NCBI RefSeq assembly: GCF_006439015.1
Contig: NZ_RCZG01000001.1
Coordinates: 372,001 to 436,000, forward strand
From: Mycolicibacterium hodleri
GTDB lineage: Bacteria; Actinomycetota; Actinomycetes; Mycobacteriales; Mycobacteriaceae
Direction: 5' to 3'
DNA length: 64,000 bases
In this document: in pieces, positions 20,965-28,738 of the stretch
How positions within the stretch are numbered: the first letter of the stretch is position 1
Layout: each line of letters starts with the position of its first letter
The notes under the pieces: model-generated
Databases searched by the model: none
The model's input: the letters and a program-made list of their open reading frames with translations, nothing else
What the model was told of the DNA's origin: nothing
Translations under genes and position numbers: made by a program

Positions 20965-21615
20965 TCACTGGGGCAGGTTCTGGCGATCAGCGGCCAGGGC
21001 CAGGAACTCGCGGTAGTGGTTCAGCGACTCGTCGGCGATGATTCCCGGCAGGTGCAACTCCCACGTCCGGGCGATCCGCGCGCGGAGGTCTGTGCCGTCA
21101 GTCAAGGCGCTCGACAGTAGCTCGGCACCCAGCATCCCTCCGACCAGGGCAGCGCTGGTCGTCTGCGCGTCCACCGAGGAACGAAGATCGCCCTCCGCGC
21201 TGGCAATCTCCATGCGCTCCACCATGTCGTCGAGGAGCATCTGGAAGATCTTCTTTGCTGCCGGGTTGAAACCGCCAAAGGTGCGAAGTAGCCGAGCGCT
21301 CGCGCACGCGACTCGGTCGCTGCCCAGCACGTCGGTCACGACGAAGGACCCGCTGATGATCTTCTCCATGGCGGGGGAGCCAGAACTGCACGCCGCGCGA
21401 AACGCGCCGAGCAGACTCTCCGAGCCCTCCTCGATGATCGCGGTCGCGAGAGCTTCCTTGGAATCGAAGTGGTAATACAGAGCGCCCTTGGTCAACTCGG
21501 CGCGTTCGATGATGTCGCCCAGGCCGGCCGCGGGGTAACCGATCTCGTTGATCAGGTCGACCGCGGAGTCGACGATCTTCCTACGTGTCGCCTCGGATCG
21601 AGCCTGGCGCACCAT
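20965..21615 (-). CDS. TetR regulator resembling gamma-butyrolactone receptors
   Basis: A 216-residue TetR protein. The HTH (residues ~5-55: ARSEATRRKIVDSAVDLINE, GLGDIIERAELTKGALYYHF) and following DSKEALATAIIEEG resemble ScbR/ArpA-type autoregulator receptors of Streptomyces, although many mycobacterial regulators share this N terminus. ATG 21615 is chosen because GGAGG lies upstream; ATG 21639 would extend it by 8 residues. It is 72 bp upstream of the two broken fadE genes and probably regulated them, so it may now be an orphan. Confidence 0.85.
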   Translation of the reverse strand: MVRQARSEATRRKIVDSAVDLINEIGYPAAGLGDIIERAELTKGALYYHFDSKEALATAIIEEGSESLLGAFRAACSSGSPAMEKIISGSFVVTDVLGSDRVACASARLLRTFGGFNPAAKKIFQMLLDDMVERMEIASAEGDLRSSVDAQTTSAALVGGMLGAELLSSALTDGTDLRARIARTWELHLPGIIADESLNHYREFLALAADRQNLPQ

Positions 21616-22110
21616 TTTCCAGTACCTCCGTCGAACCATCCAGGTGGCGGTCGTTATGCGGCATCATAGTTCGTCGACACCCAGGGCGCGGCATTCTCGT
21701 TCGCGAGTACCGACCGCCCGGTCCGTGAAGTCCCGCAGGTGAGGAAGTCGGTCCGGGCGCGCGAACCCCGTTAGGGCAAGCACGAGAACTGCGTCGAAAT
21801 CCCCAGCGGTGAACCGCTCGGCGCGTCGACATTACTCGTCTGCCGGTTGCGGAGGCGCCACGAAGTCAGCAGCAGAGCGACCCGTCATCGCGGCTCGGGT
21901 CGGGGAACTCCTTCGCATACCTATTCAGATACCTGTTCGAATACCTATTCAGACGCGTCTCCGCAGGTGTCGTAGTTCACATTCGTTCTTCGGTGGCCGG
22001 GCGAGTCCACGGGCGTGCCGACGAGTTGCCATGGCGTCTGGTCACTTAGGTAGCCAATTTTGCTCGAGAGTTCCTCGTGACCGAGTACTGCATTTCATTC
22101 CAAAAGTATG
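21616..22110. other. gene-free interval with short repeats
   Basis: About 500 bp with no recognisable gene between the TetR start and the flavoprotein locus. It holds the 12-bp triple repeat at 21917-21952 and a more AT-rich tail near 22080-22115 that provides a candidate promoter. Confidence 0.5.
21917..21952. repeat. three 12-bp direct repeats
   Basis: ATACCTATTCAG at 21917-21928, ATACCTGTTCGA at 21929-21940 and ATACCTATTCAG again at 21941-21952. Units 1 and 3 are identical; unit 2 differs at three positions. Head-to-tail iterons about one helical turn apart could be a regulator binding array or a small slippage-derived repeat. Confidence 0.7.
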
Positions 22111-22123: not shown

Positions 22124-22279
22124 GTGAACAATCCCAGCCTGGCGCAGGCCTTCCGCGCGCCGGGCAATGGCGGTCGGTTGATCCCAGCTCGTGCCGGGTG
22201 GGCGCTTCTTCGCGCAGAGCGCGAGGGGACGCCGAGGGCAACCCATGAATTATTCGACAAGTTATCGCGGGGTATTTGA
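22124..22279 (+). CDS. candidate 51-residue leaderless small protein
   Basis: A frame from GTG 22124 to TGA 22277-22279 (begins VNNPSLAQAFRAPGNGGRL, ends LFDKLSRGI). Support is positional: a TAAAGT box sits 7 nt upstream, and the stop lies 5 nt before the flavoprotein ATG and overlaps an in-frame TTG of that gene (TTGA), which would couple translation. Third-position GC is only moderately high. It has no recognised family, no signal peptide and no cysteine. It could be a leader peptide, a genuine small protein, or chance. Confidence 0.35.
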   Translation: MNNPSLAQAFRAPGNGGRLIPARAGWALLRAEREGTPRATHELFDKLSRGI

Positions 22280-22284
22280 CGCCA

Positions 22285-23217
22285 ATGTGGGATATCGAAG
22301 TCGACATTGCGGTCATCGGCGCAGGTATCGGTGGCCTGGTGAACGCCATTGCGACGGTGGACGCAGGTGGCGAGGTGCTGGTTGCCGACGCTGCTACTCC
22401 TGCGTGTCGCTCTGACGCGGCGCCGGGGGCATTGCGCGAACGTGTCGGTGCGAAGCGGAATTGGCTGAGTCGCGACACGGTCGACGTCGAGACCAACGCA
22501 TTCCTGGCGGCGATCTCGGAGGGACTCTCCGAATCGGATGTCGTTCGAGACATGCCGGTGCCTCGTCGCGTCGCGCGCAATCTATCGCGTGACGAGGCGT
22601 TCGGGCGGGTCGAAACTTTCGTGGGATCACGGTTGACCGCATGGGCTGCGCAGTGCGTCACCTCCCCGTATGGCTTGCTGAACACCAGCATGTGGGACTG
22701 TCAATCGATCACGATGCGCTCCGATGATGGTGAGTCCATCGAGGTGCAGTCCATTGGCGCGATGGAAGTAACGGCCGGCTTCGATGAGAATGCGCTGCAC
22801 CGGTGGGTGAGCGCGGAGGCGCTGGAACGTGACATCGAGGTTCGCGCCGCCAACACGCTGGAGCGGATCGTGTTCGAAGAGGGCGTGATCGTCGGCGTGG
22901 TGCTGGCGACTTCGGACGGACCCTGTGCGGTGCGGACGAGGGCAGGTGTCACCCTTGCGCCCGGAGATCACGCCCCAGTGGTCGATGATGGCGCCGCGTG
23001 GGCCGCGGGTAGTCGGCTGCAGGTGTGCGTCGTCGGTCGGACCGCGAGCCGATTCGGCCGCGTCGAACTGCTGGCAACAGAGCCTGCGGCGCCACCCCGA
23101 CCGATATGCACCGGTTCACGGCGCCAACTACGCAACGGTCTGCACGACGCTCGGCAGCCGTCCCTAGAGGGTTGGCGCTGCGGAAAAGTGCACGGGTACC
23201 CGACCTTTGGCCAGTAG
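22285..23217 (+). CDS. FAD-binding flavoprotein, probably frameshifted near 3' end
   Basis: The N terminus has a canonical dinucleotide-binding motif (DIAVIGAGIGGLVNAIATVD, residues ~7-26), as in fumarate reductase/ketosteroid dehydrogenase-like flavoproteins; the middle (NALHRWVSAEALERDI, RIVFEEGVIVGVVLATSDG) fits a substrate/FAD domain. As read it is 310 residues and its last 54 bp overlap the convergent c-di-GMP gene. Dropping one C from the CCCC run at 23095-23098 would switch to a frame ending RYAPVHGANYATVCTTLGSRP at TAG 23165-23167, giving 293 residues and the CTAG tail overlap seen at other convergent pairs here. ATG 22285 is preferred over TTG 22276. Confidence 0.65.
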   Translation: MWDIEVDIAVIGAGIGGLVNAIATVDAGGEVLVADAATPACRSDAAPGALRERVGAKRNWLSRDTVDVETNAFLAAISEGLSESDVVRDMPVPRRVARNLSRDEAFGRVETFVGSRLTAWAAQCVTSPYGLLNTSMWDCQSITMRSDDGESIEVQSIGAMEVTAGFDENALHRWVSAEALERDIEVRAANTLERIVFEEGVIVGVVLATSDGPCAVRTRAGVTLAPGDHAPVVDDGAAWAAGSRLQVCVVGRTASRFGRVELLATEPAAPPRPICTGSRRQLRNGLHDARQPSLEGWRCGKVHGYPTFGQ

Positions 23218-25020
23218 CGAGGCCATGTCCTCGCCGATCAGCGGCCGAGACAGCAGAAACCCCTGCGCGCGGTGACAGCCGTGGTGTAGCAGCGTCGTCG
23301 CAGCGATCTCCGTTTCCACGCCCTCGGCGACGAGTTCCAATTCGAAGGCCTCGGCGAGTGCGATGACGGCCCGTACGATCGCGAGATCGTCGGGGTTTGA
23401 GCCGAGGTCTGCGACGAAACTCCGGTCGATCTTGAGTACGTCGACCGGTAGTGCCTTCAGATGGGACAGGACGCTGAAACCGGTCCCGAAGTCGTCGATG
23501 GCGAGCAGTACGCCGACGTCCCGCAGACCCGCCAGTGTGACGCTGGTGGTCTCGATGTCTTGCACGACGACGGTTTCGGTGATCTCCAGGCACAGTGAGC
23601 CACGCTCGAGGTCGAACTCGCGCATGACCGCGGCCACCGACTCCACGAAACCGTCCGTCACCAGTTGGACGGGTGACACGTTGACCCGCAGGACGATTCC
23701 GGCCGCGACGCCGAGCGCCCGCCACCGAGCGAACTCCTCACAGGCGGTGCGCAACACCCAGCGACCTAACTCGCCTGCCAGGTTGATCGATTCGGCGACG
23801 GCGATGAACACCGCGGGTGAGACCAGACCTCGGGTGGGATGGTTCCATCGCACCAGCGCCTCGGTGGCCAACACTTCGCCGGTGCGCATGTCGATCTCGG
23901 GGAGGTACTGCAAGAACAACGCACCGTTCTCGATGACGTCTCGAAGATGCAGTTCGATGTCGTTCTGGTAGTCGGTCCGCAGCGCCATCTCGTCGGAGAA
24001 CACCGCGATCTGGTTGCCGCCGGCGCCCTTGGCGGTGAGAACGGCCTGGTCGGCGCGGCGGAGCAGGTCCGAGGTGGTGTCGCGGCCGGGGGTGCCCAGA
24101 CCGACACCGATGCTGACGGTTCTTGTCAACATCTCCCCGTCGATCACCACGCGCTCGCGGAGCAGTCCAAGGAGCCGCTTTGCGAGCTGTTCGGCGTCGA
24201 CGCTCGACATCGGCGCGCCGGGGATCACGACGAACTCGTCGCCCCCGAGCCGCGCGATGAGGCTCGAATCCCCGGATTCCCCTTGGAGTCGCTCAGCGAG
24301 CACCCGGATGAACCAGTCGCCGACGTTGTGGCCGAGGTAGTCGTTGATGGTCTTGAGGCGATCGAGGTCCAGGTACAGCGCCGACACGGGACCGGGACGG
24401 CCGGCCTTAAGTCTGGCGTCGAGATGGTCGATCAGTGCGCGCCGATTCTGAAGACCCGTGAGATCGTCGTGTTCGGCGAGGTAACGCAGACGCTCCTCTG
24501 CCTGCACGCGGGCCTGAACCTGGGCGAACAACGACGCAATGGCCTCGAGCGCGTTGAGTTCGGCGGGCTTCCACTCCCGGTCGCCGATCTTCACGAAGCC
24601 GAGCACGCCTGTCGTGAGATCACCCGACACCAACGGCGTCCCCGCCATTGAGGTCTGGGGAATCCTGCGACCCTCCTCGATCCGTTTCTGGTAATCCTCG
24701 TCATCGGGACGGAACACCATCGGCTTCTTCGCGGTCTCTGCAAACGCGAAAACGGGATCCGCGTCCTCGAAGTAGACAACCTTGAGCGGGTCGGGATCGG
24801 GGATGTCCATGCGCGGTGGCCACTCGGCGATCAGGATTGACGCGCGGATGGAATGGTCGTTATAGCGCAGAAAGCTGACGTCGACGTCGAAATACTCGAC
24901 CAGGAGAGCAAGCACTCGTTGAGACACGCTGACCGAGGTGGCCGCGTTCGTCGCCATGAGCTGGCCGGCGACTGTGGTTACCAGCCGGTCCAAGCTCAAC
25001 GGCGGCGTTTGTTCGGGCAC
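23164..25020 (-). CDS. GAF-GGDEF-EAL bifunctional c-di-GMP enzyme (Rv1354c/DcpA-like)
   Basis: A 618-residue cytosolic protein: GAF domain (~30-175), diguanylate cyclase domain with intact RLGGDEFVVIPG (GGDEF ~260), and EAL phosphodiesterase domain with ATEALVRWNHP (~385), VNVSPVQL, EITETVVVQD, DDFGTGFSVLSHLKALP and AEGVETE, all key acidic residues present. It should both make and degrade c-di-GMP, as reported for the M. smegmatis and M. tuberculosis homologues. No RxxD inhibitory site is seen five residues before GGDEF. GTG 25020 starts 4 nt after the moeY stop, so it is the last gene of the GNAT-MoeY-DGC operon. Confidence 0.94.
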   Translation of the reverse strand: MPEQTPPLSLDRLVTTVAGQLMATNAATSVSVSQRVLALLVEYFDVDVSFLRYNDHSIRASILIAEWPPRMDIPDPDPLKVVYFEDADPVFAFAETAKKPMVFRPDDEDYQKRIEEGRRIPQTSMAGTPLVSGDLTTGVLGFVKIGDREWKPAELNALEAIASLFAQVQARVQAEERLRYLAEHDDLTGLQNRRALIDHLDARLKAGRPGPVSALYLDLDRLKTINDYLGHNVGDWFIRVLAERLQGESGDSSLIARLGGDEFVVIPGAPMSSVDAEQLAKRLLGLLRERVVIDGEMLTRTVSIGVGLGTPGRDTTSDLLRRADQAVLTAKGAGGNQIAVFSDEMALRTDYQNDIELHLRDVIENGALFLQYLPEIDMRTGEVLATEALVRWNHPTRGLVSPAVFIAVAESINLAGELGRWVLRTACEEFARWRALGVAAGIVLRVNVSPVQLVTDGFVESVAAVMREFDLERGSLCLEITETVVVQDIETTSVTLAGLRDVGVLLAIDDFGTGFSVLSHLKALPVDVLKIDRSFVADLGSNPDDLAIVRAVIALAEAFELELVAEGVETEIAATTLLHHGCHRAQGFLLSRPLIGEDMASLLAKGRVPVHFSAAPTL

Positions 25021-25024
25021 TGAC

Positions 25025-27175
25025 TTAGGGTAGCGGTGAGGAGCATATATTGACTCTCCGTCGGCGGCTCCGGACCGTGCTGGGTGACGCGATCGACAGG
25101 CGCAGTACCAGGACGAGGGCCTCCTGGGCGTTACCGGCGGTCCCCGTCACCGTGCAGAACCGCGATCGCAGTTCCGCCAATTCCTCGGCGTGCTTCGGCG
25201 AGACGTCCACCAATTCCTCGTCGTTCAAGGCGTAGAGGAAGGGGGGCGAGATCGGCGCCACGGCCAAGCCAAGCTCCTGTGCGGCAATCCACGTCGCCTC
25301 GACCGCCGATCCGCCGCGTGCGTAGTCGACGAGGTCGTGGCCTGGTACGCAGAGGACCGCTACTGCCGAGCTAGCGGTGAGTCCCGCGGCGGTGTCGTCG
25401 CCGAGAACCGTCCCGCCGTCCCAGACCGCCAACTCCGCCATCACGTCGGCCCGACGCAGGATCTCCAGGGCGACATCGCCTGTGGGGCCCAGCTCCAGGC
25501 TAAGGACGTCGATGCCCGTATCCGGGTCCTCATCGCCCGGCCATCTAAGCTCCGAGATCATCTCCTCGTGCAGTCTGGCGGTCAGATAGCGGATGCGGTC
25601 GGCGGCGGCGAAGATGCCGGCGATTTCGTCGATGTCGGCACGGGACGTAATCAATTGCAGTCTTGCGCCTTCTCGTTGTGCGGTCTCGATGAGACGATCG
25701 CCGACGTCCGGGGGCAGCGCCGCGCCGTTGCCGCGGTTGCGGTTGGTCTCGCGACGTAACATCGCGTCGTACGACGGAGCCAGGTTGTCGTCGATGCCCT
25801 CGGTCAGTCGTATCCGGGCCGTCAGCGGGCACGGGCTGGCTGCCTCAACGAAGTCGACCTGGCTCACGGCACCGTGTGCGGCTGCCGCCACCCGGGCGTT
25901 GTATGCGGCGGCGCCCAACGCCACGGCACTTCCGCGCCGCCCGACGTCGATGGTCGACGTGCGATCGGGGTCCAGGGCGATGGCGACCCCGTCGGGCAAC
26001 GCGTCGATGGTCCATGGCTGGACGTTGCCGCCCGACGGTGCGCGCACCGCAGCGTTCACCATGGAGGCGATGAGATCGTCGGACTCCGCGGACGCCGCTG
26101 GGGTGCGATCGGTGTCGACACCTACGAGCGCGGGCGCTTGGCTGGGCGTTGCGATCCGGTCGAGCGCCGCGCCGACGTCCAGGCGAATGCGGCCCGACGA
26201 CAGATCTTCGCCAAGGCCGATTCTGCGGACGGCCTCCGCGACGGGGCCTGCGCCGAGCGTCACGTCACCGGCCAGCTGAGGCCACGTGACGACTGCATGA
26301 CCCACCTCGAGAAGGGATGCCGCGGCCCGCGACGACAGTCCACCGACCTCTATGAGTCGGAGCACGTACGGGACCTTGTCACTAGCACTCAAGTCCGCCA
26401 ACGTCTCTGGGTCGACGTCGCCGAGCAGGCCGTGAAAGATCGGACGGTCGGGTTCGAGGTCGAACCGTTCGACATCGATGAGTCCACGATCACTGGTCGC
26501 CATCAGGACTGGCAGCCGGTGCGTCCGCGCCGATCGTCGTATACCGACCTTGAGGTCGATTGAGTCGCATTCCTCGACCACGACGTCGAGGCCTTCGAGG
26601 AATTCGTCGATATCGTCCGCGGTCACCCCGGAGCGGAAGGTCCGGACCGTCAGGTACGGGTCCACCTCGGCGATTCTGCGGGCCGCGGCGGTGGCCTTGT
26701 TGAGGCCTAGATCGAACACGCCGGCCGGCACTCGGTTCAGGTTGGAAAGGTCCAGTTCGTCGTAGTCGGCGAGCCGCATCTCGCCACAGAGGCCCTGCAA
26801 GGCGAGCGTGTGTGCGATGACGTGGCCCGCACTGAGTCCGATGACGCCGACGTGCAACCGCCCGAGACGATCCTGCTCATCGGCCGTGATCAGATTCCGG
26901 TTGCGATCCAATCGGAGCCGGCGAAACGACCGCGGGCCGATGATCTTTACCACCGCGCGACGCCACGGGTAGTAGGCGAACCGAGGTGACTCCTCGAGGA
27001 CTTCGGCGTCGACATTCGGACCAAGCCGGTTGAGCGCGGCGCTCTGGGCAGCCCACGAGTCGACGAACTCGATCCTCGGGTCGGTCTGCAGCTCGGCCAG
27101 TCGTCGCGCGTCCTGGCCCACCGCGGCATCGAGAATCTGGGCGGCGCTGTCAGAGGCGGCGTCTATTGCCGTCAC
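25025..27175 (-). CDS. moeY: E1-like (ThiF) / nitroreductase fusion, MoeY (Rv1355c family)
   Basis: A 716-residue two-domain protein. About residues 105-330 form a ThiF/MoeB-type adenylating fold (LGRLHVGVIGLSAGHVIAHT nucleotide loop; DYDELDLSNLNR; VVEECDSIDLK). About 365-690 form a nitroreductase-like flavin domain (MVNAAVRAPSGGNVQPW). The usual E1 GxGGxG loop is altered to GLSAG, and no CxxC zinc pair is seen, so activity may differ from MoeB. The gene name implies molybdopterin metabolism, but the function is not established. GTG 27175 overlaps the upstream gene's stop (GTGA) and the c-di-GMP gene follows 4 nt later, giving three tightly coupled genes. Confidence 0.9.
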   Translation of the reverse strand: MTAIDAASDSAAQILDAAVGQDARRLAELQTDPRIEFVDSWAAQSAALNRLGPNVDAEVLEESPRFAYYPWRRAVVKIIGPRSFRRLRLDRNRNLITADEQDRLGRLHVGVIGLSAGHVIAHTLALQGLCGEMRLADYDELDLSNLNRVPAGVFDLGLNKATAAARRIAEVDPYLTVRTFRSGVTADDIDEFLEGLDVVVEECDSIDLKVGIRRSARTHRLPVLMATSDRGLIDVERFDLEPDRPIFHGLLGDVDPETLADLSASDKVPYVLRLIEVGGLSSRAAASLLEVGHAVVTWPQLAGDVTLGAGPVAEAVRRIGLGEDLSSGRIRLDVGAALDRIATPSQAPALVGVDTDRTPAASAESDDLIASMVNAAVRAPSGGNVQPWTIDALPDGVAIALDPDRTSTIDVGRRGSAVALGAAAYNARVAAAAHGAVSQVDFVEAASPCPLTARIRLTEGIDDNLAPSYDAMLRRETNRNRGNGAALPPDVGDRLIETAQREGARLQLITSRADIDEIAGIFAAADRIRYLTARLHEEMISELRWPGDEDPDTGIDVLSLELGPTGDVALEILRRADVMAELAVWDGGTVLGDDTAAGLTASSAVAVLCVPGHDLVDYARGGSAVEATWIAAQELGLAVAPISPPFLYALNDEELVDVSPKHAEELAELRSRFCTVTGTAGNAQEALVLVLRLSIASPSTVRSRRRRVNICSSPLP

Positions 27176-27912
27176 AGCGCGGCCGCGCGGCTGACGTGCT
27201 GAGACTCGGCCTGCGTGGCGGCGATTCGCATCTCATCAAAGATTTTCGGGAGTTGTTCTGGTGCTGCATGATTGGCGAAGGTACGCCGGTCCCACCACAT
27301 CATCTTCGTGCGGTATCGCTCATCCGGATACGGTGTCGCGGCAATGGGTGCCACCACGGCTCCCGACGTGCGCCACCGCTCGAGCACGTGAGGAGCGCAG
27401 GTCGCCACGCCGAACTGGACGTCCAATAACGCCATCGCATGAAAGATGGTGCGCGCCAACGCATACGACAAGCGTCGCGCGCTGTCCCGGTCGTCGGTGG
27501 TCCACGCCGTCTTCATTTCGAGGACGCCGAAGGGCACGCGATCGTTGATCATCTTGCGCACGGCGGGAAGTCCCGGCTGTCCCGACCACTCGATCGTCGC
27601 GTGGGAGTCGTCGGCCGAGGCGAGGGGCCCCTTGGCGCGAAGTCCGCCGATGACCCGTCCTGACGAGTCGAGGGTTGCCCAGAACATTGCGGTGTCCGAA
27701 CCGTCCGCGATGGCGGCAACGTCGATGGCCCGTTCGACGCCGTGGCGCCGGTAGCTTCGCTCCGCGCCACGGAGGTACTCCTCCCACAGGTCGCGATCCA
27801 CGTCGGGCCGTGACACCACCATCATGCAGTCTGCCTCGGCGTCCCACCAGCTGATGTTCTCTGCGAGTCCGCCGTCAGGAGGGAATCCGAATTCGATCGG
27901 CTGGGGGTGCAT
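27172..27912 (-). CDS. GNAT-like protein, possible N-acyl amino acid/autoinducer-type synthase
   Basis: A 246-residue protein, first gene of the operon (ATG 27912, GAGG upstream). Its pattern suggests an acyltransferase fold: a strand with a putative cofactor loop (GRVIGGLRAKGPL, ~85-97), a VLEMKTAW strand (~130), a long helix (DSARRLSYALARTIFHAMAL), and FGVATCAPHVLERWRTSG near the C terminus, reminiscent of FeeM/LuxI-related GNATs. The fold call is by eye and tentative. Neighbours (E1/nitroreductase and c-di-GMP enzyme) make a signal- or metabolite-synthesis role attractive. An adjacent homologue may exist beside Rv1355c in other mycobacteria; not checked. Confidence 0.55.
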   Translation of the reverse strand: MHPQPIEFGFPPDGGLAENISWWDAEADCMMVVSRPDVDRDLWEEYLRGAERSYRRHGVERAIDVAAIADGSDTAMFWATLDSSGRVIGGLRAKGPLASADDSHATIEWSGQPGLPAVRKMINDRVPFGVLEMKTAWTTDDRDSARRLSYALARTIFHAMALLDVQFGVATCAPHVLERWRTSGAVVAPIAATPYPDERYRTKMMWWDRRTFANHAAPEQLPKIFDEMRIAATQAESQHVSRAAAL

Positions 27913-28285
27913 TTAAGCCTCATTCATAGGGCAGCCGGTGAGTCGGTGAAGTCGTCGCTGGCCGCGGTCATTTCAGGGGGGTGATAAGTCGTGCGAAATA
28001 AGTATCAGTCCCACGGCGATTCAATCCCAGCTAGGCTTCGAATGTTTTCTGAATTATCACGATCACCCGCCTACCTGCCACGATGACCGGCTAACCGCGG
28101 GCGAGTTACGGCAATGTTGATTATTTTCATCGATGCAGCTTGTTGTCATCTGCTACGTTCGGTGGCGAATGGCTGCCCAGTCCCAGGCAAATTAATGCCC
28201 ATGGCTGTCATTGTTTTGGCCACTCGACGATTACGGTGCACGTCTGGGCGCATTCGGTGATCAAGGTTCATTGAGAGGAGCGAGC
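27913..28285. other. AT-richer divergent promoter region
   Basis: 373 bp between the divergent GNAT-like and MaoC genes. It is noticeably lower in GC than its surroundings (e.g. 28020-28060 and 28110-28140) and contains no convincing reading frame. It should hold promoters of both genes. No clear long palindrome was seen. Confidence 0.5.
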
Positions 28286-28738
28286 GTGAAGGTTTTCAGC
28301 GATCTAAATGAGTTTGCGGCGGCACTCGGCAGCCAACACGGACCCACGGACTGGATGGAGATCAGCCAAGACCGGGTGGACCTCTTCGCCGAGGCCACCG
28401 ACGACCACCAGTGGATCCACGTCGACCCCGAACGGGCTGCCGAAGGACCGTTCGGTGCGACGATCGCCCACGGTTTGCTCACGCTGTCGCTGCTGCCGCA
28501 CTTCTCCCATCAGCTGTACCGGGTCGACAACATCGCGCTGGCAGTCAACTACGGCTATAACAAGGTTCGGTTCATCACACCGGTGAAGGTGGGCGCGAAG
28601 ATTCGCGCTCGGGGCGAAATCACCGCGATCAACCAACTCGATGGGGCGGTGCAGGCGACCACGATGATCACCGTCGAGATCGAGGACTCCGCGAAGCCGG
28701 CCGCGGTGGCGGAGTCGATCGTCCGCTACCTTGCGTGA
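28286..28738 (+). CDS. (R)-specific enoyl-CoA hydratase, MaoC family (HtdZ/Rv0130-like)
   Basis: A 150-residue hot-dog-fold protein with the hydratase-2 signature: catalytic Asp and His in EATDDHQWIHVDPERA (~30-45), then FGATIAHGLLTLSLLP (~52-67). It hydrates trans-2-enoyl-CoA to (R)-3-hydroxyacyl-CoA. GTG 28286 has a GAGAGGAG site; the open frame continues upstream without a better start. The length matches remembered Rv0130 (HtdZ). It converges on a fadE gene, an arrangement like Rv0130/Rv0131c. Confidence 0.9.
   Translation: MKVFSDLNEFAAALGSQHGPTDWMEISQDRVDLFAEATDDHQWIHVDPERAAEGPFGATIAHGLLTLSLLPHFSHQLYRVDNIALAVNYGYNKVRFITPVKVGAKIRARGEITAINQLDGAVQATTMITVEIEDSAKPAAVAESIVRYLA

What the first reader, a model, noticed from the sequence alone, without database searches (positions are those of the whole stretch)
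23164..27912. Coupled operon: GNAT-like synthase, E1/nitroreductase fusion and c-di-GMP enzyme
Three minus-strand genes are joined by a 4-bp overlap (GTGA at 27172-27175) and a 4-bp gap. The products are an acyltransferase-like protein, a protein joining an adenylating ThiF fold to a flavin nitroreductase fold, and a complete GAF-GGDEF-EAL protein. ThiF-like plus nitroreductase-like activities occur together in azoline/azole peptide maturation and other activation-oxidation pathways. Combining them with a GNAT and second-messenger turnover suggests synthesis of a small signal or modified metabolite coupled to c-di-GMP. The c-di-GMP enzyme is known; the joint function is not, as far as I know.
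Basis: partly seen in the sequence, partly recalled or inferred. Interest (0 to 1): 0.8.

Follow-up and report, generated by a model that had tools for sequence, protein, structure and literature searches.

The report
Tryptazolone signal operon with c-di-GMP enzyme
Three tightly packed mycobacterial genes are predicted to make a small tryptophan-fatty acid molecule (an N-acyl tryptazolone, as published for the same genes in related bacteria) and would likely use it as a signal for the c-di-GMP enzyme encoded beside them, a gene partnership seen in most of the actinobacterial relatives examined.

Summary
The three genes are real, intact and packed as described. The chemistry is in print: orthologues Rv1356c/Rv1355c are TrzA (tryptophan N-acyltransferase) and TrzS (ThiF cyclase fused to a flavin desaturase), which make N-acyl tryptazolones (PMC12856293, Dec 2025). 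That paper notes c-di-GMP neighbours in one sentence and leaves the role open. Added here is a census. Of 102 distinct actinobacterial-type trzS loci, 93 have a GAF-GGDEF-EAL gene within 6 kb (2 of these cut by a contig end), 4 have another GGDEF/EAL gene, 3 have none and 2 end at a contig edge. In 396 genomes drawn across the phylum, all 16 with trzS also have this gene; 2 have it without trzS. The link persists through changed gene order, a TrzA-TrzS fusion and other GGDEF proteins. TrzA paralogues sit beside GGDEF genes at 4 of 8 separate loci. FeeM and LasI, both signal-type synthases, head the fold matches of TrzA, with a plain GNAT tied. Best reading: a signal synthase encoded with its c-di-GMP sensor, wired like RpfF/RpfR with different chemistry. 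That the product binds the GAF domain is inferred and untested; a review reports GDP as ligand in M. smegmatis.

The parts
27172..27912 (-). trzA-like gene: predicted L-tryptophan N-acyltransferase (246 aa), FeeM/LuxI-like GNAT fold
27172..27175 (-). GTGA, 4-base overlap of the trzA stop (TGA) and trzS start (GTG)
   Evidence: read from sequence
25025..27175 (-). [quoted passage not shown] 'Rv1355c family protein'
   Evidence: NF005901 966 bits against a cut-off of 476; ThiF and nitroreductase Pfam hits; D204, K209, R529 invariant in the 22-row alignment
25021..25024 (-). 4-base gap GTCA between the trzS stop (TAA) and the dcp start (GTG)
   Evidence: read from sequence
23164..25020 (-). dcp gene (618 aa): GAF-GGDEF-EAL, predicted c-di-GMP synthase/phosphodiesterase, DcpA/Rv1354c type; GGDEF and EAL motifs intact, no RxxD inhibitory site
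   Evidence: Pfam, motif positions 259, 387, 509, 566, best solved relative 5yrp EAL domain E 2.5e-122
24490..25005 (-). GAF sensor domain of dcp, residues 6-177; proposed binding site of the tryptazolone or N-acyl-tryptophan (inferred)

Best explanation
This is a trzA-trzS-dcp operon in which, by orthology, TrzA is predicted to acylate L-tryptophan and TrzS to cyclise and desaturate it to an N-acyl tryptazolone, which would then likely bind the GAF domain of the co-encoded GGDEF-EAL protein and so set the cell's c-di-GMP level. Shown in print for orthologues: acylation of tryptophan from acyl-CoA, ATP-dependent cyclisation, then O2-dependent desaturation (PMC12856293). Shown here: intact genes and motifs, a FeeM/LuxI-like predicted fold of TrzA, and a conserved linkage of the biosynthetic genes with this GAF-GGDEF-EAL family. 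Inferred: that the three genes are one transcript, that the linkage means product-to-sensor signalling (like RpfF/RpfR), and that the ligand is the tryptazolone or its N-acyl-tryptophan precursor. Unknown: whether binding raises or lowers c-di-GMP.
Confidence: 0.45

Rival explanations
1. The control runs the other way: c-di-GMP made by Dcp regulates TrzA or TrzS, so that the operon makes the metabolite only in certain growth states.
For: A published precedent fuses a FeeM-type N-acyl amino acid synthase to a PilZ c-di-GMP-binding domain (PMC4897644 passages). Some TrzA paralogues sit beside GGDEF genes without any trzS (L056, L059, L062).
Against: No PilZ or other known c-di-GMP-binding domain in TrzA or TrzS. 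Dcp carries its own conserved sensor domain, which this reading leaves without a role.
Confidence: 0.2
2. Shared-cue operon: Dcp senses GDP or energy state, and the tryptazolone is an independent stress or envelope metabolite that is merely switched on with it.
For: GDP reported for the M. smegmatis GAF domain (PMC8846402 passages); dcp paralogues live without trz in mycobacteria; oxazolones are discussed as stress-associated (PMC12856293 discussion).
Against: Co-transcription for a shared cue does not explain why the link persists through other cyclase types, convergent and divergent layouts, and TrzA paralogues.
Confidence: 0.25
3. Plain metabolite cluster: TrzAS makes a lipid-like or antimicrobial compound, and dcp is a neighbour kept by common descent only.
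For: Much of the linkage may be one ancient event; Bacteroidetes and other relatives of trzS have no c-di-GMP gene near.
Against: Gene order and cyclase type change while the link stays; the chance of a GGDEF gene as direct neighbour is about 0.6% per locus, yet 4 of 8 separate TrzA paralogue loci have one.
Confidence: 0.1

Closest known systems
trzAS (Rv1356c-Rv1355c) tryptazolone pathway, with rv1354c next door
   Same: Same protein families, gene order and c-di-GMP neighbour; Rv1355c-family equivalog model hit at twice its cut-off
   Different: The window's species is untested; its acyl-chain preference is unknown. Published work names the c-di-GMP adjacency in one sentence without testing it
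OxzAB (Pseudoalteromonas rubra) and TyzACB (M. tuberculosis) oxazolone pathways
   Same: Acyltransferase plus ThiF plus flavin oxidase making N-acyl oxazolones (PMC10404671, abstract and passages)
   Different: Tyrosine/phenylalanine-derived products; TyzB and TyzC are separate proteins
RpfF/RpfR (BDSF) signalling of Burkholderia
   Same: Signal synthase gene next to a sensor-GGDEF-EAL receptor gene; rpfF and rpfR are convergent (PMC6361424 passages), as are TrzA paralogues and GGDEF genes at L048, L056, L062
   Different: RpfF makes a cis-2 fatty acid and the sensor is a PAS domain; [quoted passage not shown] receptor role here untested
FeeM and LuxI-type signal synthases
   Same: Heads of the fold list for TrzA
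   Different: No Pfam family hit for TrzA; a plain GNAT is tied in Z; the product goes on to an oxazolone
DcpA / MSDGC-1 (MSMEG_2196) and Rv1354c
   Same: GAF-GGDEF-EAL architecture; the 5yrp EAL domain is a close relative (that 5yrp is the M. smegmatis protein is recalled)
   Different: Not compared over full length; ligand response of the window's protein unknown
FeeM-PilZ fusion synthases Nas343/Nas354
   Same: N-acyl amino acid synthase tied to c-di-GMP (PMC4897644 passages)
   Different: There the tie is a c-di-GMP-binding domain on the synthase; here a separate sensor-cyclase-phosphodiesterase

Membership tests
TrzAS tryptazolone pathway | ThiF-type cyclase fused to flavin-dependent oxidase, Rv1355c family | tested here: met
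   NF005901 966 bits, cut-off 476; ThiF and nitroreductase Pfam hits
TrzAS tryptazolone pathway | Upstream acyltransferase with FeeM/AHL-synthase fold next to trzS | tested here: met
TrzAS tryptazolone pathway | Residues D217 (adenylation), R540 and Q651 (FMN site) of the M. smegmatis TrzS | tested here: inconclusive
   D204 and R529 are invariant in the 22-row alignment and are the likely counterparts, but the M. smegmatis sequence was not at hand for an exact mapping; the likely Q651 position (640) is A in the window and Q, H, R or V in the others
TrzAS tryptazolone pathway | Makes N-acyl tryptazolone from L-tryptophan | not testable with these tools
   Needs expression and mass spectrometry
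DcpA-type GAF-GGDEF-EAL protein | GAF, GGDEF and EAL domains with intact catalytic motifs | tested here: met
   Pfam; GGDEF, EAL, DDFG, EGVE motifs intact in the window; GGDEF exact in 81 of 90 and EAL in 80 of 90 trz-linked homologues
DcpA-type GAF-GGDEF-EAL protein | GDP-responsive GAF domain | not testable with these tools
   Reported for M. smegmatis in a review (PMC8846402 passages)
RpfF/RpfR (BDSF) system | Crotonase-fold signal synthase (fold of RpfF recalled) | tested here: not met
   The synthase has a GNAT-type fold; no enoyl-CoA hydratase family hit in the trio
RpfF/RpfR (BDSF) system | Sensor-GGDEF-EAL gene beside the synthase gene | tested here: met
   dcp beside trzAS, GAF in place of PAS
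Azoline/azole peptide maturation | YcaO cyclodehydratase with a precursor peptide (recalled) | tested here: not met
   No YcaO family hit in any of the three proteins; the wider neighbourhood was not scanned for YcaO or precursor peptides

The most novel reading that the evidence does not exclude
The trz locus is an actinobacterial autoinducer system: TrzA and TrzS make a tryptazolone signal whose receptor is the GAF domain of the co-encoded c-di-GMP enzyme, wired like RpfF/RpfR but evolved separately and spread over at least two actinobacterial classes. In mycobacteria, for which a 2025 paper says no quorum-sensing system has been described (PMC12632254), it would be the first.
Probability: 0.33. 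Interest if true: 0.9.

Novelty: new member of a known kind. Interest (0 to 1): 0.55.

Why it matters
The physiological role of N-acyl oxazolones is called a major unresolved question by the group that found them (PMC12856293), and the role of c-di-GMP in mycobacterial biofilms is called unclear (PMC12632254). The census turns a one-sentence remark about adjacency into a strong and repeatedly rearranged genetic linkage, and so names a single, directly testable ligand-receptor pair. If it holds, it gives mycobacteria and their relatives a small-molecule signal that feeds c-di-GMP.

Tried and rejected
Azoline/azole peptide maturation was rejected because no YcaO-type protein is in the trio and the published product is an oxazolone. 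Molybdopterin synthesis (the MoeY name) was rejected: the MoeB/MoeZ models score far below their cut-offs while NF005901 scores at twice its own. Sequence-only searches of TrzA against solved structures found nothing believable; the fold comparison did. The GAF model matched many GAF domains at similar Z, among them Lcd1 with cAMP, so the fold does not tell the ligand. Fold lists are not exhaustive. The F91/Y110 difference between trz-linked and orphan GAF domains was set against four other clades treated the same way: those lost 0, 1, 0 and 0 such GAF residues but 0-10 in GGDEF or EAL; it points to the GAF domain but is weak. A tree of 104 Dcp proteins (quick method, midpoint root) puts 12 of 14 orphans in one mycobacterial clade inside trz-linked lineages, with 3 label changes; the linked rows were gathered through trzS, so this is biased, which is why the dcp-first counts are the ones I rely on. 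Paper searches for oxazolone/OxzAB, N-acyl amino acid with c-di-GMP with oxazolone and Rv1354c-Rv1356c listed no paper that by title or abstract tests the link; I read only passages of some, and the library lacks most subscription journals.

Limits and rows left out: partial trzS places (L047-L057) are not in the 43; 7 duplicate loci were removed before the count of 116. The 102 actinobacterial-type loci include L145 (ThiF part only), L137 and L138 (trzS cut by the contig end), L153 (fusion split over two frames) and L127 (labelled as an Acidobacteria MAG). In L034 and L107 only the GAF part is seen before the contig ends. One of the 60 dcp places (G021) matched only from residue 134, its GAF part being in another frame. 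Of the 19 dcp places not at trz, 14 neighbourhoods were read (L065-L078); the other 5 were judged by coordinates. The genome search scored only the top 2-4 candidates per genome with the long proteins. L082 was left out of the domain conservation counts. GGDEF/EAL genes near trzS were sought with actinobacterial queries at tblastn 1e-4, which may miss very distant ones.
Full report
OBSERVATION. The window (C1:372001-436000 of a 6.38-Mb, 52-contig genome) holds three intact minus-strand genes at the coordinates given. The first two overlap by GTGA at 27172-27175 and the last two are parted by 4 bases, so one transcript with coupled translation is likely (inferred). The first protein has no Pfam or NCBIfam hit; the second is the Rv1355c-family ThiF/flavin oxidase fusion (966 bits, cut-off 476); the third has GAF, GGDEF and EAL domains.

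CHEMISTRY IN PRINT. PMC12856293 (outline with abstract, passages, sections 7 and 8) shows that Rv1356c (TrzA) acylates L-tryptophan and that TrzS (Rv1355c; the in vitro work used the M. smegmatis protein) cyclises it with ATP and then desaturates it with O2, giving N-acyl tryptazolones, found in M. smegmatis and R. jostii RHA1 cells but not in M. tuberculosis. PMC10404671 (abstract and passages) describes the related Tyz pathway. The Trz paper says in one sentence that the locus adjoins c-di-GMP genes, as a hint at signalling; it calls the role of oxazolones unresolved. So the joint function is not unknown, and the open question is the c-di-GMP link.

CENSUS FROM TRZS. In 298 genomes of the order full-length TrzS occurs at 43 places in 39 genomes (in a 40th, G183, it is split over two contigs). 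Neighbourhoods: 39 of 43 have a GAF-GGDEF-EAL gene (in L012 and L034 it runs off the contig), 3 have another GGDEF or EAL gene (L028 a divergent GGDEF gene beside trzA; L030 an EAL end upstream at a contig edge; L038 a GGDEF gene nearly 7 kb away), 1 has none (L019, the second trzS of its genome). A genome-contig scan added 80 named loci, 7 of them duplicates. Of 116 distinct loci, 102 are of actinobacterial type: 93 GAF-GGDEF-EAL, all within 6 kb (all three domains seen at 91), 4 other GGDEF/EAL (L028, L030, L038, L129), 3 none (L019, L089, L093), 2 at contig ends (L137, L138). One is a Granulosicoccaceae MAG with trzA, trzS and a divergent PAS-GGDEF-EAL gene (L133). Thirteen are from 11 Bacteroidetes, a cyanobacterium and a Patescibacteria MAG, with none (6 of the 13 have short flanks). 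In 85 of 116 the GAF domain begins within 800 bases 3' of trzS on the same strand. L019, L089 and L093 also lack trzA and have a P450 gene near trzS.

CENSUS FROM THE OTHER SIDE. Searching the same 298 genomes with Dcp gives 60 places that match as GAF-GGDEF-EAL proteins, separated from GGDEF-EAL proteins without the GAF match by a gap from 1e-131 to 1e-103. By my tally 41 lie at a trz locus and 19 do not; outside the window's genus 18 of 19 do, inside it 23 of 41. By genome: 38 both, 2 trzS only (G003; G135 with a truncated dcp), 9 dcp only, 249 neither (Fisher p 6e-37). In 396 genomes drawn across the phylum: 16 both, 0 trzS only, 2 dcp only (G422, G647), 378 neither (p 1e-26); 11 of the 16 are also in the order sample. 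Shared ancestry makes these p-values too small; they describe, they do not prove. GGDEF genes number 11-18 in the 8 genomes counted, so a 20-kb stretch holds one by chance about 5% of the time.

REARRANGEMENTS. The five phylum-sample genomes with trzS outside the order (all outside the class too) carry a TrzA-TrzS fusion ORF of 943-991 aa, each with dcp directly beside it on the same strand: upstream in G411, G443 and G675, downstream in G531 and G635. In the named scan 15 loci have such a fusion in one frame and L153 has it over two frames; by label 8 of these 16 are Acidimicrobiaceae, 7 'Actinomycetes bacterium' and 1 an Acidobacteria MAG, and 13 of 16 show a further GGDEF gene after dcp (L132 appears to be the same contig as G531). 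In Antrihabitans a ThiF-only gene, a reversed GAF-GGDEF-EAL gene and trzA lie side by side (L145). In L006, L007 and L014 trzS lies about 5 kb off while trzA and dcp stay adjacent. The reverse also occurs: dcp with trzS and no trzA seen at L080, L081, L082, L114 and L123 (L080 with a short flank).

TRZA PARALOGUES. The window's genome has a second TrzA (48% identity) that overlaps a convergent PAS-GGDEF gene (L056). Of 8 TrzA loci away from full-length trzS (L048, L056, L059, L060, L061, L062, L063, L064), 4 have a GGDEF gene as direct neighbour, of different architectures (L048, L056, L059, L062); L060 is near a contig end and L063 is a broken copy. The chance is about 8e-8 at the measured density if the loci were independent, which they are not fully.

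SENSOR DOMAIN. Between the main actinobacterial set and the 14 Acidimicrobiaceae-type proteins the GAF domain keeps 41% identity, against 42% (GGDEF) and 45% (EAL), which suggests a conserved ligand. In 14 Dcp proteins away from trz, GAF lags behind EAL (49% against 61% to the linked set), and two residues near-invariant in 89 linked proteins, F91 and Y110, are changed in 7 and 9 of 14, while none of 70 such residues in GGDEF and EAL is (p 0.047). The GAF model (pLDDT 88) matches GAF domains generally. GGDEF is exact in 81 of 90 and EAL in 80 of 90 linked proteins, so both activities are likely in most.

MECHANISM. The reading that fits most facts is a signal synthase encoded with its c-di-GMP sensor. 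The best-studied parallel is RpfF/RpfR, where BDSF binds a PAS-GGDEF-EAL protein and raises its phosphodiesterase activity, with the two genes convergent (PMC6361424 passages). The opposite direction has a precedent in a FeeM-PilZ fusion (PMC4897644 passages). Against the first: GDP is reported for the M. smegmatis GAF domain (PMC8846402 passages; the primary paper was not read), and the MSMEG_2196 deletion showed no aggregation change, though an effect on colony morphology is cited (PMC12632254 passages). MSMEG_2196 is said to be co-transcribed as MSMEG_2199-MSMEG_2196 or transcribed alone (a 2013 study, not read, cited in PMC5741613 passages); that this operon holds trzAS of M. smegmatis is likely but was not checked.

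VERDICT. Observation confirmed; chemistry known; the conserved and repeatedly rearranged link to c-di-GMP is the part worth following. Interest 0.55, with a novel reading of probability 0.33 that would deserve 0.9.

Noticed in passing
L006:11006-12370 and 16 further loci (L007, L008, L011, L012, L013, L014, L019, L081, L082, L087, L088, L089, L092, L093, L096, L138): A cytochrome P450 gene (Pfam p450 for the L006 copy; others 62-95% identical to it) lies near trzS at 17 of 116 distinct loci, between trzA and trzS in L008: a candidate for tailoring the tryptazolone. The window's trz locus has none.
   Followed up: partly
22276-23217 (+): ORF with a weak FAD-binding match (below cut-off) that runs against the 3' end of dcp and overlaps it by 54 bases; relatives lie at 28 of 123 trz loci searched, the window and duplicates included.
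   Followed up: partly
G000:C45:95922-96563, L056:9871-12314: Second TrzA-family synthase gene of the window's genome, convergent with and overlapping a PAS-GGDEF gene, with no trzS in the 20 kb read.
   Followed up: yes
20965-21639 (-) and 28211-28738 (+): TetR-family regulator and MaoC-like dehydratase on either side of the operon; relatives at 19 and 21 of 123 trz loci, the window included. ORFs around look like acyl-CoA metabolism and might supply the acyl chain (not tested).
   Followed up: partly
L115:8254-14400 and similar loci: Acidimicrobiaceae MAGs: one 953-aa ORF with TrzA, ThiF and oxidase parts, then GAF-GGDEF-EAL, then a separate GGDEF protein.
   Followed up: yes
L026:5251-8954, L029:5786-13067: Two GAF-GGDEF-EAL genes at one trz locus: tandem in L026, on either side of trzAS in L029.
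   Followed up: no
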